Of a DNA stretch of 64,000 bases, positions 18,476 to 23,913 are shown one piece after another. This stretch comes from an uncultured Clostridium sp. (GTDB taxonomy: Bacteria; Bacillota; Clostridia; Lachnospirales; Lachnospiraceae). Below the pieces are notes generated by a model, which saw only the letters and a program-made list of their open reading frames with translations, was not told the origin of the DNA and made no database searches. Every line of letters starts with the position of its first letter. The first letter of the stretch is position 1. The stretch spans positions 62,001-126,000 of the forward strand of contig URFM01000002.1 in the NCBI GenBank assembly GCA_900547035.1, written 5' to 3'. Position numbers and translations under genes: made by a program.

Positions 18476-18526
18476 TGTTGATCCTTTAAAACGGCGCGGA
18501 ACGGTAAGTTGAAGGAGGATTCTGGT

Positions 18527-18811
18527 ATGTGGCAGAAGGAACAGATTATTGCGGAGCTTCAGAAAAGGGGGAAGCGGATTACGGAGCAGAGAAAAGTTCT
18601 GCTGGATGTGATCCTGGAAGGAAATTGGACCTGCTGCAAGGAGATTTATTATGAGGCGGTGAAGCGTGACCCTTCCATTGGAATGGCTACGGTGTACCGG
18701 ATGCTCAGCACTCTGGAGGAAATCGGGGTGCTGACCAGAACCTACCGCTACTCCTTCCCGCCGGAAGAGAAAGGGTGTGAATCAGGATGGCAACAGCGGT
18801 TATATGTATAA
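18527..18811 (+). CDS. Short Fur-family regulator lacking the metal-binding domain
   Basis: Only 94 residues: the winged-helix part of Fur (ITEQRKVLLDVIL, CCKEIYYEAVKRDPSIGMATVYRMLSTLEEIGVLTR) followed by about 20 unrelated residues. Full Fur proteins have some 140-150 residues, with a C-terminal dimerisation and Zn/Fe domain carrying His and CxxC motifs that is absent here. AAGGAGG lies eight bases before the ATG at 18527. It is 51 bases after feoB and overlaps the next gene by 25 bases, so the missing part is not simply frameshifted. Similar short Fur forms near feoB occur in other Clostridia from memory. It could be a DNA-binding modulator of the Feo operon. Confidence 0.8.
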   Translation: MWQKEQIIAELQKRGKRITEQRKVLLDVILEGNWTCCKEIYYEAVKRDPSIGMATVYRMLSTLEEIGVLTRTYRYSFPPEEKGCESGWQQRLYV

Positions 18812-19161
18812 TTCTGGTGATTGCGGTGGTAGCGGGTGTGAAGAGCTACATGAAAAAGCTTCGATCCGGCTGCTGTGGGGCTTCATCGGAGCCGGCAGTG
18901 AAAAAGGTGAAGGTGAAGGATAAAGACCCTTCCCATTATCCTTACCAGAAGGTGCTGAAAATCGACGGCATGACCTGCGGCAACTGCGCCAACTGCGTGG
19001 AAAACGCCCTCAATCATCTGGATGGAGTTTACGCCTCCGTAGATTTGATGAAAGAGGAGGCGGTGGTCCGCATGAAGGAAAAGGTGGAGGACCAAATCCT
19101 GAAAAAAACGGTAGCTGCCGCCGGATATACGGTTTATAAGGTGACTGAGCAGAACACCTGA
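18787..19161 (+). CDS. FeoB-associated membrane-anchored Cys/HMA protein
   Basis: A 124-residue protein with one N-terminal membrane segment (3-18), a short basic stretch, a cysteine pair in SGCCGASSE (as in FeoB-associated Cys-rich membrane proteins) and a C-terminal heavy-metal-associated domain (about 55-124) with the site GMTCGNCANC. It combines the small FeoB-associated anchor with a copper-chaperone-type fold. The start overlaps the 3' end of the Fur-like gene in another frame. Last gene of the feo operon; possibly delivers or senses metal at the membrane (inference). Confidence 0.82.
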   Translation: MATAVICIILVIAVVAGVKSYMKKLRSGCCGASSEPAVKKVKVKDKDPSHYPYQKVLKIDGMTCGNCANCVENALNHLDGVYASVDLMKEEAVVRMKEKVEDQILKKTVAAAGYTVYKVTEQNT

Positions 19162-19299: not shown

Positions 19300-20094
19300 T
19301 TATGAATGGCAGTGATGGCCGCCATCGTGGCCTCCGCATCCATGCTCGCCGCAGGTCCCGCCTTCGTGATGATGTTCTCCGTGATGGTCGCAGTGGACAT
19401 CGGGGTCAAAGGCCAGGTTTCCGGCCAGATAGGATTCCACCGCCTCGTCCGCGCTGCCGGAAGCGCCGCCGTAGAGCTTGATTCCGGCTTCCGCCAGGGC
19501 TGCCTGGGCGCCGCCGCCGATGCCGCCGCAGATCAGGACATCCGCTTTTAAGGAAGTCAATACGCCGGCCAGAGCGCCGTGGCCGCTGCCGTTTGTGCTG
19601 ACAACCTGGGAAGATACTACCTTTCCCTCTTCCACGTCGTAAATCTTGAAGGCCTCTGTGCGGCCGAAATGCTGAAAAATTTCTCCATTTTCATAGGTAA
19701 CTGCAATTCTCATCTGATTCTCTCCCTTCGGTATATGATAGGTCGGATTGCCAGGGTGCCTGCAGCAGTCCTTAAAGGCGCAGAATTGTCCGCTGCCATC
19801 GCAGAGCCGGTAGTCTCCCCCCTGAATCCTTAAGGAACGTCCCTCCACCAGAACGTCCGCCAGCTTTTTTCTGGCGTCGGCGTAAATCTGCTGGACGGTG
19901 GTCCGGGCAATCCTCATCTGGCTGCCGCACTGCTCCTGAGAAAACCCCTCATGGTCAATGAGGCGGATGGTTTCGTACTCGTCCAGCGTCAGGATGACGT
20001 CTTTTCCAGAGAAATTTCCCTCTTCCCCTTCCGGATAAAAAGCCAGGGTCTGAGGAAAATGACATACCCGTCTGCATTTCCGGGGTCTGGACAT
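19300..20094 (-). CDS. DUF134 - NifX/NifB-C fusion with His-rich tail
   Basis: A 264-residue two-domain protein. Residues 1-100 are a DUF134 helix-turn-helix domain (start MSRPRKCRRV, then LDEYETIRLIDHEGFSQEQC and the recognition region TTVQQIYADARKKLADVL). Residues about 127-235 are a NifX/NifB C-terminal-like domain that binds iron-molybdenum or other metal clusters (FQHFGRTEAFKIYDVE, ADVLICGGIGGGA). The tail is rich in His, Cys and Gly and should bind metal. It is probably a metal- or cluster-sensing repressor; the palindromes overlapping its own promoter suggest autoregulation (inference). Ferredoxin and NapH-like genes lie just upstream on the same strand. Confidence 0.87.
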   Translation of the reverse strand: MSRPRKCRRVCHFPQTLAFYPEGEEGNFSGKDVILTLDEYETIRLIDHEGFSQEQCGSQMRIARTTVQQIYADARKKLADVLVEGRSLRIQGGDYRLCDGSGQFCAFKDCCRHPGNPTYHIPKGENQMRIAVTYENGEIFQHFGRTEAFKIYDVEEGKVVSSQVVSTNGSGHGALAGVLTSLKADVLICGGIGGGAQAALAEAGIKLYGGASGSADEAVESYLAGNLAFDPDVHCDHHGEHHHEGGTCGEHGCGGHDGGHHCHS

Positions 20095-20989: not shown

Positions 20990-21142
20990 AGTGTTTCCTC
21001 CCCTGTAAATGATTGTTATGGTGATATTATAAAAAATATGAGGGGCGGATTCCGTGATTTTGTCACGGACAGGTATGGGAAATACGGAAGGCAAAAGGTC
21101 CATACATACCAACTAATTGATAATATTTTTCAACAAGTGTCA

Positions 21143-21156
21143 TTAGCATTGACTAA
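21143..21156. promoter_or_regulatory. TTAG-N6-CTAA operator in a divergent promoter region
   Basis: TTAGCATTGACTAA lies between the ferredoxin gene (minus) and the microprotein-DUF6110 genes (plus). Its right half overlaps a possible -35 TTGACT (21149-21154), followed 18 bases later by TAAGAT. Confidence 0.6.
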
Positions 21157-21248
21157 GGCTCTTAAAGACTGTTAAGATTCAAATTGTAAAGAAAAAATTC
21201 CCAGGATTGGGACAAACAGTAATCAGCAGTAAAGGAAGTGACGGACAG

Positions 21249-21329
21249 ATGAAACAGCACAGATTCTGGGCCTGGGCCATGCTCTTTTGCCTGGCCATGA
21301 CCTTATATACCGGTTACAAGCACAAGTAG
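21249..21329 (+). CDS. 26-residue membrane microprotein
   Basis: A very short open frame, MKQHRFWAWAMLFCLAMTLY followed by TGYKHK, forming one hydrophobic helix with basic ends. A GGAAGTGACGGACAG stretch upstream gives a weak ribosome binding site. It stops 18 bases before the DUF6110 gene, and I recall comparable microproteins before such genes in related bacteria. It could be a small subunit of the downstream P-type ATPase system. Function unproven. Confidence 0.6.
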   Translation: MKQHRFWAWAMLFCLAMTLYTGYKHK

Positions 21330-21347
21330 AAAGAGGAGGAATGTACC

Positions 21348-21650
21348 ATGTTTAAGTGTTTAAATTGTATTGACTGGAAAAAGACCGCAATCTTCGCGGG
21401 AGGCGTGCTGTTCGGCACAGCGGGTGTGAAGGTTCTTGGAAGCTCAGACGCGAAGAAATTCTATGTAAACTGTCTGGCGGCAGGACTGAGGGCGAAGGAG
21501 TGCGTGATGACCACCGCCACCAACATCCAGGAGAATGCGGAGGATATCCTGGCAGAGGCGGAGGAGATTAACCGCCAGAGAAAGGGCGAGGAGGAGTTCG
21601 CCGACGAGAGTCAGGAGAGCGCGGAGGAAGAGGCCGCCGCTGAGGCATAG
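21348..21650 (+). CDS. DUF6110-type small membrane protein next to a P-type ATPase
   Basis: A 100-residue protein that matches my recollection of DUF6110. An N-terminal stretch with a glycine-rich membrane helix (AIFAGGVLFGTAGVKVLGS, 13-31) is followed by a conserved amphipathic helix (AKKFYVNCLAAGLRAKECVM) and a strongly acidic tail (residues 76-100). AGAGGAGGAATG precedes the ATG. The plan matches mycobacterial PacL proteins (DUF1490), small scaffolds of metal-efflux P-type ATPases, though not by obvious sequence. It lies between the microprotein and the P-ATPase; a terminator-like hairpin at 21679-21713 could make it more abundant than the pump. Confidence 0.75.
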   Translation: MFKCLNCIDWKKTAIFAGGVLFGTAGVKVLGSSDAKKFYVNCLAAGLRAKECVMTTATNIQENAEDILAEAEEINRQRKGEEEFADESQESAEEEAAAEA

Positions 21651-21678
21651 AAGGGAAGGAGTTCAGCTTGGGTGAACA

Positions 21679-21713
21679 ACCGCTCTGGGAAAAATCCAGG
21701 GCGGTATTTTTTC
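21679..21713 (+). terminator. Internal terminator between DUF6110 gene and P-type ATPase
   Basis: ACCGCTCTGG (21679-21688) pairs with CCAGGGCGGT (21696-21705, one G-U) and is followed by ATTTTTTC. It would give partial termination before the ATPase gene. Confidence 0.7.
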
Positions 21714-21743
21714 AAGGCCCATTTGGACAGGAGGAATATTTGC

Positions 21744-23819
21744 ATGAAATTTGTTATTAAGCATGAAATGAAAGGGCGGATTCGCCTGCATATGGCCCAG
21801 AGGCAGATGTCCATCCGCCAGGCGGACCTTCTGCAGTATTATCTGACTACCCTTCCCCAGGTAAAGGCGGCGAAGGTTTATGAGAGAACCTGTGACGCCG
21901 TGGTCCGGTATGAGGGCGACCGGAAAAGCCTGCTGGAGGGGATTCAGAAATTTTCTTATGCAGATGAGAAGCTGATGGAGCTGGCCCCAAAACACACAGG
22001 ACGGGCACTGAACCGGGAGTACAAGGAGAAGCTGATTCGCAAGGTACTGGTAAAGGCATTGACCAAGACGTTTTTTCCCAGTCCCCTGAATGCCCTGTAC
22101 ACAGCAGTCCAGGCGGTTCCGTATCTTTGGAAGGGGATTCGGTGTCTGGCGAACGGCAGACTGGAGGTAGAGGTCCTGGACGCCACCGCCATCACCGTAT
22201 CCATGGCCCGCAGCGATGTGAACACGGCCGGCTCCATCATGTTCCTTTTGGGAATCGGCGGACTTCTGGAGGAATGGACCAGGAAGAAGTCAGTGGACGA
22301 CCTGGCCAGGAGCATGTCCCTGAACATTGGCAAGGTTTGGCAGAAGGTGGACGGAGCCGAGGTTTTGGTTCCCCTGTCCCGAATTCGGGAAGGGGATTTG
22401 GTGACGGTCCATGTGGGAAGCATGGTTCCCTTAGACGGCATTGTGGCGGAAGGAGAAGCCATGATTAATCAGGCTTCCATGACCGGGGAGTCCGTTCCCG
22501 TCCATAAAGAAGCGGGAGGCTATGTATATGCGGGAACCGCGGTGGAAGAGGGAGAGATTACCATCTGCGTGAAAAAGGCCGCCGGTTGCACCCGTTTTGA
22601 GCGGATTGTCCATATGATTGAGGAGTCGGAAAAGCTGAAGTCCTCGGTGGAGGGCAAGGCGGCCACTCTGGCGGACGCCCTGGTACCCTGGAGCCTGGGA
22701 GGAACGGTCCTTACCTGGCTTCTGACCCGCAACGTTACCAAGGCCCTGTCTATCCTGATGGTGGATTTCTCCTGTGCGCTGAAGCTGGCTATGCCACTGG
22801 CGGTGCTGTCCGCCATGCGTGAGGCCAGCGGACACCATATCACCGTAAAGGGCGGAAAGTACATGGAGGCTGTGGCGGAGGCGGATACCATCGTCTTTGA
22901 CAAGACGGGGACCCTGACCAAGGCGCAGCCGGTGGTGGCGGATATCGTGACCTTTGAGGGCCGGGACCAGAACGAGATGCTGCGGGTGGCGGCCTGCCTG
23001 GAGGAGCATTTCCCCCACTCCATGGCAAACGCTGTGGTCAGCGAGTCGGTGCGCCGTCATCTGGTTCATGAGGAGATGCATTCCAAGGTGGATTACATCG
23101 TGGCCCACGGCATCGCCAGCTATATCGGACAGGAGCGGGTGGTCATCGGAAGCTACCATTTTGTATTTGAGGATGAAAAATGCGTCATTCCTCAGGGAGA
23201 GGAAGAGAAATTTGAGGAACTGCCTGAGGAATACTCCCATTTGTATATGGCCATCGGCGGCGTACTGGCCGCGGTAATCTGCATTCAGGACCCCCTGAGG
23301 GAGGAGGCTCCTGAGGCGATTCGGCGTTTGAAGGAACTGGGCATCTCCAAGGTAGTGATGATGACCGGAGACAGCGAGCGGACGGCCCGGGCCATCGCCA
23401 GACGGGTGGGAGTGGACGAGTATTACTCAGAAGTCCTGCCGGAGGACAAGGCGGGATTTGTGGAGAAGGAAAAGCAGGCCGGACGCAAGGTCATTATGAT
23501 TGGGGACGGCATCAACGACTCCCCGGCGCTGTCCGCTGCCGATGTGGGCATTGCCATCAGCGAAGGGGCGGAGATTGCCAGGGAGATTGCGGATATTACC
23601 ATTTCCCAGGACGACCTTCTGCAGCTGGCAACCTTAAAAGCTTTGAGCAACGGGCTGATGAAGCGGATTAACGGCAATTACCGGTTCGTCATCAGCTTCA
23701 ACCTGGGGCTGATGATCCTGGGCGTAGCCGGCGTGCTGGCCCCCTCCACCTCGGCGCTGCTGCACAACACCTCCACCCTGGGCGTCAGCTTGAAGAGTAT
23801 GACGGATTTGCTGGCATAA
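21744..23819 (+). CDS. P1B-like heavy-metal P-type ATPase with degenerate HMA domain
   Basis: A 691-residue transporter. The N-terminal 75 residues look like an HMA fold without a CxxC site (KGRIRLHM, ADLLQYYLTTLPQV). Pump motifs follow: TGES (MTGESVPV), DKTGTLT, the HP locus (EEHFPHSMA), MTGD and GDGINDSPALSAAD. The membrane metal site that is CPC or SPC in Cu, Zn and Cd pumps reads DFSCALKLAMP, which suggests a different metal preference, as in CtpC/CtpD-like pumps. The start at 21744 follows AGGAGG; the frame is open from 21672. The C-terminus has one or two membrane helices. Probably a metal efflux pump acting with the DUF6110 protein. Confidence 0.88.
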   Translation: MKFVIKHEMKGRIRLHMAQRQMSIRQADLLQYYLTTLPQVKAAKVYERTCDAVVRYEGDRKSLLEGIQKFSYADEKLMELAPKHTGRALNREYKEKLIRKVLVKALTKTFFPSPLNALYTAVQAVPYLWKGIRCLANGRLEVEVLDATAITVSMARSDVNTAGSIMFLLGIGGLLEEWTRKKSVDDLARSMSLNIGKVWQKVDGAEVLVPLSRIREGDLVTVHVGSMVPLDGIVAEGEAMINQASMTGESVPVHKEAGGYVYAGTAVEEGEITICVKKAAGCTRFERIVHMIEESEKLKSSVEGKAATLADALVPWSLGGTVLTWLLTRNVTKALSILMVDFSCALKLAMPLAVLSAMREASGHHITVKGGKYMEAVAEADTIVFDKTGTLTKAQPVVADIVTFEGRDQNEMLRVAACLEEHFPHSMANAVVSESVRRHLVHEEMHSKVDYIVAHGIASYIGQERVVIGSYHFVFEDEKCVIPQGEEEKFEELPEEYSHLYMAIGGVLAAVICIQDPLREEAPEAIRRLKELGISKVVMMTGDSERTARAIARRVGVDEYYSEVLPEDKAGFVEKEKQAGRKVIMIGDGINDSPALSAADVGIAISEGAEIAREIADITISQDDLLQLATLKALSNGLMKRINGNYRFVISFNLGLMILGVAGVLAPSTSALLHNTSTLGVSLKSMTDLLA

Positions 23820-23913
23820 TCCATTTAAGATTTGACACATGTTTAAGAGAATGTTATAATGAAGCTCCAAAACTTTCACAGATGTGGACTTTTCTGGAAC
23901 TTTCCATTTTTCG

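What the first reader, a model, noticed from the sequence alone, without database searches (positions are those of the whole stretch)
21249..23819. Microprotein, DUF6110 protein and P-type ATPase as a PacL-like metal-efflux platform
Seen: a 26-residue single-helix protein, a 100-residue protein with a glycine-rich membrane helix, amphipathic helix and acidic tail, then a P-ATPase with a degenerate HMA domain. An internal terminator at 21679-21713 would make the small proteins more abundant than the pump. Known: mycobacterial PacL1 (DUF1490) has a similar plan and scaffolds the CtpC Zn-exporting P-ATPase. Inference: this is a Clostridial counterpart, with an extra microprotein subunit.
Basis: partly seen in the sequence, partly recalled or inferred. 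Interest (0 to 1): 0.72.

Follow-up and report, generated by a model that had tools for sequence, protein, structure and literature searches.

The report
Iron-type pump operon with conserved microprotein
A gut bacterium carries a three-gene operon (a 26-residue membrane microprotein, a small scaffold-like membrane protein and a metal pump) that recurs in related bacteria and looks more like an iron-storage or iron-export device than the zinc exporter first proposed.

Summary
The microprotein is a real protein: 87 of 140 loci, always exactly 26 residues, dN/dS about 0.12; it is a relative of Pfam DUF6219. The PacL link is supported but already in print: PMC9374683 says DUF6110 is related to DUF1490/PacL and typically encoded with P1B6-ATPases. 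The zinc-exporter analogy is not supported. The pump has P1B6 signatures (SCALK in TM4, HN in TM6, no CPC), its neighbours are iron genes, and a Fur-box-like palindrome lies upstream. The closest described Firmicutes operon by gene plan is C. difficile fezXAB (ferrosomes); sequence orthology to it was not shown. New here: the microprotein as a recurrent operon member, a composite promoter seen only at this operon in 7 of 10 genomes searched, and a nearby DNA-binding-domain-only "mini-Fur". I read it as a Fez-like Fe(II) P1B6 system with a PacL-like scaffold; storage versus export is unresolved.

The parts
18509..18811 (+). mini-Fur: Fur-family DNA-binding domain without the C-terminal metal-binding/dimerisation half (100 aa from TTG, 94 aa from ATG 18527); candidate regulator, 2.4 kb upstream
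   Evidence: FUR Pfam match covers profile positions 1-62 of 121; in many relatives a Fur-like ORF lies within 1 kb upstream of DUF6110
21118..21132 (+). Fur-box-like palindrome TGATAATATTTTTCA
   Evidence: 12 of 14 matches to TGATAATNATTATCA; P=0.006 against 500 dinucleotide shuffles of the 250 nt upstream; starts 31 nt before the -35
21149..21178 (+). predicted promoter: -35 TTGACT (21149-21154), -10 TAAGAT (21173-21178)
   Evidence: 9 of 12 matches; conserved composite promoter in relatives
21249..21329 (+). 26-aa single-helix microprotein, relative of DUF6219 (PF19727)
   Evidence: PF19727 22.7 bits, below the 27-bit cut-off; 26-aa relatives carry PF19727 and the name DUF6219; purifying selection
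21348..21650 (+). DUF6110 protein: Gly-rich TM helix, long helix, acidic tail; PacL-like scaffold candidate
   Evidence: PF19605 108.4 bits; homology to DUF1490; low-confidence model
21679..21713 (+). intrinsic-terminator-like hairpin with T-tract between DUF6110 and ATPase genes
   Evidence: 11-pair stem, 5-nt loop at 21679-21705, tail ATTTTTTCAA; similar hairpins in 36 of 59 loci with room
21744..23819 (+). P1B6-type P-ATPase (691 aa), degenerate HMA_2 N-terminus, TM4 DFSCALK, TM6 HNTST
   Evidence: TIGR01525 479.6 bits, over cut-off; motifs; tree

Best explanation
The operon encodes a Fe(II)-handling P1B6-ATPase system of the ferrosome (Fez) kind. Shown here: a recurrent gene unit; the microprotein is under selection as a protein; DUF6110 is homologous to PacL/DUF1490; the pump has P1B6 motifs; a Fur-box-like promoter block is conserved in many loci. 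Inferred: DUF6110 oligomerises through its Gly-rich membrane helix, as described for PacL, and its long helix holds the pump in membrane patches or vesicles; the acidic tail may bind iron weakly; the microprotein is a membrane subunit or regulator of pump or scaffold; the terminator keeps the small proteins in excess of the pump. The pump moves Fe(II) out of the cytosol, most likely into a membrane-bounded store, otherwise out of the cell. Expression is set by a Fur-type signal, perhaps through the nearby mini-Fur.
For: DUF6110 followed by ATPase in 137/138 loci. SC in TM4 and HN in TM6 in all 86 full-length DUF6110-linked pumps examined (HNxST pattern in 85, L061 reads HNALT); they and three pumps of proteobacterial small-protein clusters form one clade with CtpC-like pumps outside (100/100, 31 rows). 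P1B-6 substrate listed as Fe(II) (PMC7558416 Table 4, passage). Window neighbours: FeoB, Fur-type protein, FeoB-associated/HMA protein, ferredoxins. Fur-box-like sites (12 of 14 or better) upstream of 21/143 operons against 0.43 expected; PerR 2, Zur 0, four other controls 0. feoB one ORF upstream of DUF6110 in L175 and a DtxR-like ORF before it in L171 (read by eye). C. difficile CD630_05910 (ATPase) and CD630_05920 (hypothetical, Fur box) are up at low iron and in the fur mutant (PMC6311696 Table 1, passage) and are named fezAB in PMC11651100 (passage).
Against: No DUF4405 (FezC-type) match among the 10 window proteins scanned. Strong Fur-box matches are in only 21 of 143 loci; at 11 of 14 the contrast is weaker (Fur 46, PerR 24, an AT-rich palindrome 13). 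The palindrome lies upstream of the -35 at fixed spacing, which fits an activator as well as a repressor. feoB is nearby in only 21 of 52 large loci. No expression, localisation or transport data.
Confidence: 0.57

Rival explanations
1. PacL-like efflux platform: the same proteins form plasma-membrane patches that export toxic Fe(II) or another divalent metal from the cell; no storage organelle.
For: Homology of DUF6110 to DUF1490; PacL proteins cluster P-ATPases in the membrane and their conserved TM glycines are needed (PMC13043812, passages); GxxxG and GxxG both occur in the first 60 codons of 133/146 DUF6110 open frames.
Against: Pump is P1B6, not CtpC-type; no His-rich metal-binding tail. 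A Fur-repressed exporter made in iron starvation would be odd, while ferrosomes formed under iron limitation are described for C. difficile (PMC12269695, passage); but the direction of regulation here is unknown.
Confidence: 0.3
2. The 26-codon ORF is a regulatory leader peptide whose translation tunes the operon, not a working protein.
For: It is the first ORF after the predicted promoter and a terminator-like hairpin follows DUF6110.
Against: Residue-level conservation along the chain with near-saturated synonymous sites and invariant length; 84 loci leave no room for the downstream hairpin.
Confidence: 0.06
3. Mn or Zn rather than iron is the substrate, with a Fur-family sensor of another metal.
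For: Fur-family boxes resemble one another (at 11 of 14, PerR consensus 24 loci against Fur 46); the regulator is unproven; DUF1490 partners include CtpC-, CopA- and CadA-like pumps by TM4 motif and annotation.
Against: At 12 of 14 the Fur consensus (21) beats PerR (2), Zur (0) and an MntR-like consensus (0); iron genes next door; P1B-6 listed as Fe(II).
Confidence: 0.15

Closest known systems
C. difficile ferrosome operon fezXAB
   Same: Adjacent genes for a small membrane protein and an ATPase; Fur-controlled. That FezB is a P1B6-ATPase is recalled.
   Different: Sequence relation of FezA to DUF6110 and of FezX to the microprotein not shown here; organelle formation untested
DUF6110-P1B6 modules ('PacL-like proteins') of PMC9374683 and PMC13043812
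   Same: Same family and same partner; this is a member
   Different: Neither main text holds 'microprotein' or 'ferrosome'; DUF6219 is in no paper of the library
Mycobacterial PacL1-CtpC (DUF1490)
   Same: Homologous TM plus helical protein encoded before a P-ATPase with HN in TM6
   Different: CPC in TM4, Zn2+ resistance, metal-binding tail in PacL1; no microprotein described in the passages read
DUF6219 (PF19727)
   Same: Microprotein related to 26-aa entries carrying that family
   Different: Window copy scores 22.7 bits, below the curated 27

Membership tests
DUF6110 (PF19605) | Score over the family's curated cut-off | tested here: met
   108.4 against 26 bits
DUF1490/PacL (PF07371) | Score over the family's curated cut-off | tested here: not met
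   13.3 against 28.4 bits, E=0.092
DUF1490/PacL (PF07371) | Homology at profile level | tested here: met
   hhalign 90.8 against controls; P0255 matches both families, DUF1490 at 25.7 bits, below its cut-off
DUF1490/PacL (PF07371) | C-terminal metal-binding motif (DLHDHDH in PacL1) | tested here: not met
   Window tail is acidic without His or Cys (sequence); only 3 of 146 DUF6110 open frames have 3 or more Cys/His in the last 25 residues
P1B6-ATPase | HN motif in TM6 and no CPC in TM4 | tested here: met
   DFSCALK and HNTST; HN as a P1B6 feature and CPC as P1B1/P1B2 feature from PMC9374683
P1B6-ATPase | Fe(II) transport | not testable with these tools
   Listed in PMC7558416 Table 4; no assay
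Ferrosome (Fez) system | P1B6 pump (FezB; type recalled) encoded next to a small membrane protein | tested here: met
   Gene plan and motifs
Ferrosome (Fez) system | Small protein orthologous to FezA | tested here: inconclusive
   No row named C. difficile among the 120 of 173 hits listed
Ferrosome (Fez) system | Control by Fur and iron | tested here: inconclusive
   Fur-box-like palindrome; no expression data
Ferrosome (Fez) system | Membrane-bounded iron-rich granules | not testable with these tools
   Needs electron microscopy
DUF6219 (PF19727) | Score over the family's curated cut-off | tested here: not met
   22.7 against 27 bits; relatives of the same length carry the family

The most novel reading that the evidence does not exclude
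PacL effluxosomes and ferrosomes are branches of one ancient machine: a small Gly-zipper scaffold plus a P1B6-type pump. In Lachnospiraceae it has gained a 26-residue pump-associated subunit and its own one-operon regulatory circuit, a metal-blind mini-Fur acting at a composite promoter, making ferrosome-like iron storage a common trait of gut commensals.
Probability: 0.27. Interest if true: 0.8.

Novelty: new variant of a known kind. Interest (0 to 1): 0.57.

Why it matters
Two published lines of work, PacL effluxosomes and ferrosome organelles, may describe relatives. In the library searched, two papers hold DUF6110 and neither main text holds 'ferrosome'. DUF6110 is in 60 of 150 sampled genomes of the family of Hungatella hathewayi (G003), so iron storage or export of this kind could be common in gut commensals. 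The microprotein gives a defined, testable candidate for a P-ATPase-associated single-helix subunit; its 81-nt gene is shorter than the 90-nt default minimum of a common gene finder (recalled), which may be why it is rarely annotated.

Tried and rejected
Zn-exporter analogy with CtpC: rejected on TM4 motif, tree and promoter. Leader-peptide reading of the 26-aa ORF: unlikely. PerR, Zur and MntR-like control: few or no sites at 12 of 14. A whole-genome check of the window was impossible: no genome is held. Linking C. difficile FezA by name: the relatives listed and plasmid and phage searches gave no row named C. difficile. Plasmid search for DUF6110 gave only two Deinococcus plasmids, both with the P-ATPase next to it. 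Mini-Fur length count is too high because it began at the first Met; I use the stop-to-stop lengths (26 of 45 Fur-like ORFs at most 122 codons). The short-pattern search for the microprotein gave 40 hits in 36 of 150 genomes: 19 lie within about 600 nt of a DUF6110 match, 21 lie elsewhere and were not followed; the reversed control gave 4. The DUF6219 profile search of 398 genomes found only 3 weak places in 2 genomes, none over the cut-off, so that profile is a poor probe for the 26-aa form. The terminator count has no shuffle control. The promoter profile was seeded and trained on the same loci; the reversed control and the genome search (ten genomes chosen because they carry the microprotein) are the checks. 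The DUF1490 alignment and the tree use few, hand-picked rows, some on long branches. AlphaFold of DUF6110 was of low confidence, so no fold search was made.

Full report
What is there. At 21249-23819 lie a 26-codon ORF, a DUF6110 gene and a P-ATPase gene on one strand. The nearest genome found is Candidatus Enterocloster faecavium: L001, DUF6110 97% and ATPase 95% identical. The ATPase most likely starts at ATG 21744, because most relatives align from that residue; the terminator-like hairpin is therefore intergenic. A perfect promoter-like site for the next gene, a MATE transporter, lies at 23832-23860, so the unit probably ends with the ATPase.

Conservation. I fetched 80 loci by DUF6110 similarity (the best 80 of 399) and sampled whole genomes with the Pfam model: 8 of 398 genomes of the phylum (6 over the cut-off), 60 of 150 of one family (59 over), 7 of 73 and 25 of 196 of two orders (one search repeats 45). 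Where the locus left more than 900 nt downstream, the ATPase followed in 77/77, 27/27, 7/8, 4/4 and 23/23 cases, 137 of 138 without the one duplicate locus. For the family sample only 29 of the 61 matches, the best-scoring ones, were examined as loci. The exception, L087, is a second copy in one genome (G073) that keeps microprotein and DUF6110; no ATPase ORF is seen in the 10 kb around it (L172). One phylum-sample match, L091, was dropped because my own DUF6110 profile did not hit it.

Microprotein. Of loci with more than 500 nt upstream, 65/78, 10/29, 4/8, 0/5 and 9/21 carry an ORF of the type MKxH[RK]FWAWA...YTGYKHK, each exactly 26 aa, 69 distinct sequences in the pooled sets; 87 of 140 without the duplicate. 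It is frequent near the window's lineage and absent from the distant DUF6110 loci examined, so it is an accessory, not a core part. Selection analysis on 87 sequences gives dN/dS near 0.12, with a Shine-Dalgarno-like stretch before 76 of 87. A database search with an alignment of variants gave 223 proteins at E up to 1 (120 listed), among them 26-aa entries named DUF6219 (P0205, P0233). DUF6219 appears in no paper of the library.

DUF6110 and PacL. A DUF6110 profile built without DUF1490 picked out the DUF1490 proteins beside CtpC-like pumps in two Rhodococcus plasmids (E=0.00018 and 0.0088 in that small set). Profile comparison gave probability 90.8 and score 38.7, against at most 14.0 in 40 block-shuffled and 14.4 in reversed controls. 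P0255, named as a Peptococcaceae DUF6110 protein, matches PF19605 (1.2e-7) and PF07371 (1.2e-5, under its cut-off) over the same residues. The same comparison links DUF6110 to the small protein directly before the pump in Arcobacter, Cereibacter and Vibrio plasmid clusters (probability 91.5, three sequences, no shuffled control for this pair). The relation of DUF6110 to DUF1490 and to P1B6 pumps is prior art: PMC9374683 (passages read) and PMC13043812 (passages read; term check).

The pump. TM4 reads DFSCALK and TM6 HNTST. All 86 full-length DUF6110-linked pumps examined have SC in TM4 and HN in TM6 (85 fit HNxST, L061 reads HNALT); CtpC-like pumps have CPC with HN. A 31-row tree puts the DUF6110-linked pumps and the three proteobacterial ones in one clade (100/100), with CtpC-like pumps outside (some rows are on long branches). 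The Cereibacter cluster sits beside FeoA and TonB siderophore-receptor genes; the Arcobacter cluster has a protein with a weak DUF4405 hit (E=0.0079, below cut-off), the family to which FezC is related (PMC11334425, passages). Rhodopseudomonas makes ferrosomes from six fez genes (PMC12016538, passage); I did not compare sequences with it.

Regulation. The 15-nt palindrome TGATAATNATTATCA (12 of 14 or better) occurs upstream of 21 of 143 operons against 0.43 expected; at that level PerR has 2, Zur 0 and four other controls 0, while at 11 of 14 the numbers are Fur 46, PerR 24 and an AT-rich palindrome 13. In 15 of the 21, by my reading, the palindrome starts 31 nt before a -35-like hexamer; 6 do not show this. 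A profile of the whole block finds it in 59/87 loci with the microprotein and 5/55 without; reversed sequences 0/142. With up to two mismatches the composite occurs once in each of 7 of 10 genomes and nowhere else in them, and not at all in 3; all seven places lie beside the DUF6110 gene. In 71 loci with 2.5 kb upstream, a Fur-like gene lies within 6 kb in 41 of 53 with the composite and 4 of 18 without (Fisher p=5e-5, not corrected for kinship); 26 of these 45 Fur-like ORFs are at most 122 codons long, about the DNA-binding half. Whether the site represses or activates is open: a site upstream of the -35 at fixed spacing often suggests activation (general knowledge).

Mechanism. C. difficile CD630_05910 (ATPase) and CD630_05920 (hypothetical, Fur box) rise at low iron and in the fur mutant (PMC6311696 Table 1, passage); PMC11651100 names the pair fezAB (passage), and that the ATPase is FezB and the Fur-box gene FezA is my reading. 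Reviews describe FezA as a membrane protein, FezB as a transporter, both Fur-repressed (PMC12574912, passages), and a system fezXAB (PMC11533511, passages). The primary papers were not held. That FezB is a P1B6-ATPase is my recall. The shared plan, pump type and Fur link make a Fez-like iron system the best reading, but FezA-DUF6110 identity is not shown: no row named C. difficile was among the 120 of 173 relatives listed. Export from the cell remains the main rival. That FezX could correspond to the microprotein is a guess.

Verdict. A real, recurrent operon of a published kind (DUF6110 with P1B6), with three additions: a selected 26-aa member, a conserved promoter block, and a nearby mini-Fur.

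Noticed in passing
18509-18811: Fur-family gene holding only the DNA-binding half; similar short Fur genes lie close upstream of the operon in many relatives. Longer versions (e.g. Mediterraneibacter loci) mostly lack usual Fur metal-ligand motifs: a simple pattern check flagged only L043 and L044.
   Followed up: partly
18787-19158: FeoB-associated Cys-rich membrane segment (weak, below cut-off) fused to an HMA metal-binding domain, next to the mini-Fur and feoB.
   Followed up: no
19300-20094 (minus strand): DUF134 fused to a dinitrogenase iron-molybdenum cofactor domain with a His-rich tail, next to two iron-sulphur proteins, transcribed divergently from the operon.
   Followed up: no
L165:2414-2710: DUF1490 gene on a Mycobacterium avium plasmid with an ABC ATP-binding gene before it and fetB (iron export permease) after it, not a P-ATPase: PacL-type proteins may serve ABC exporters too.
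   Followed up: no
L172:5150-5422: Second DUF6110 copy (with microprotein) in genome G073 lacking an adjacent ATPase.
   Followed up: partly
H52-H54 (records MT836292, MT838294, MT835525): Three unannotated faecal 'Bacteriophage sp.' records encode DUF6110-like stretches (E 6e-6 to 5e-5); real phage cargo or host contamination not checked.
   Followed up: no
L037, L085, L107; P0267, P0275: Three of 146 DUF6110 open frames end in Cys-rich tails, as do the Clostridium proteins P0267 and P0275: possible metal-binding variants.
   Followed up: no
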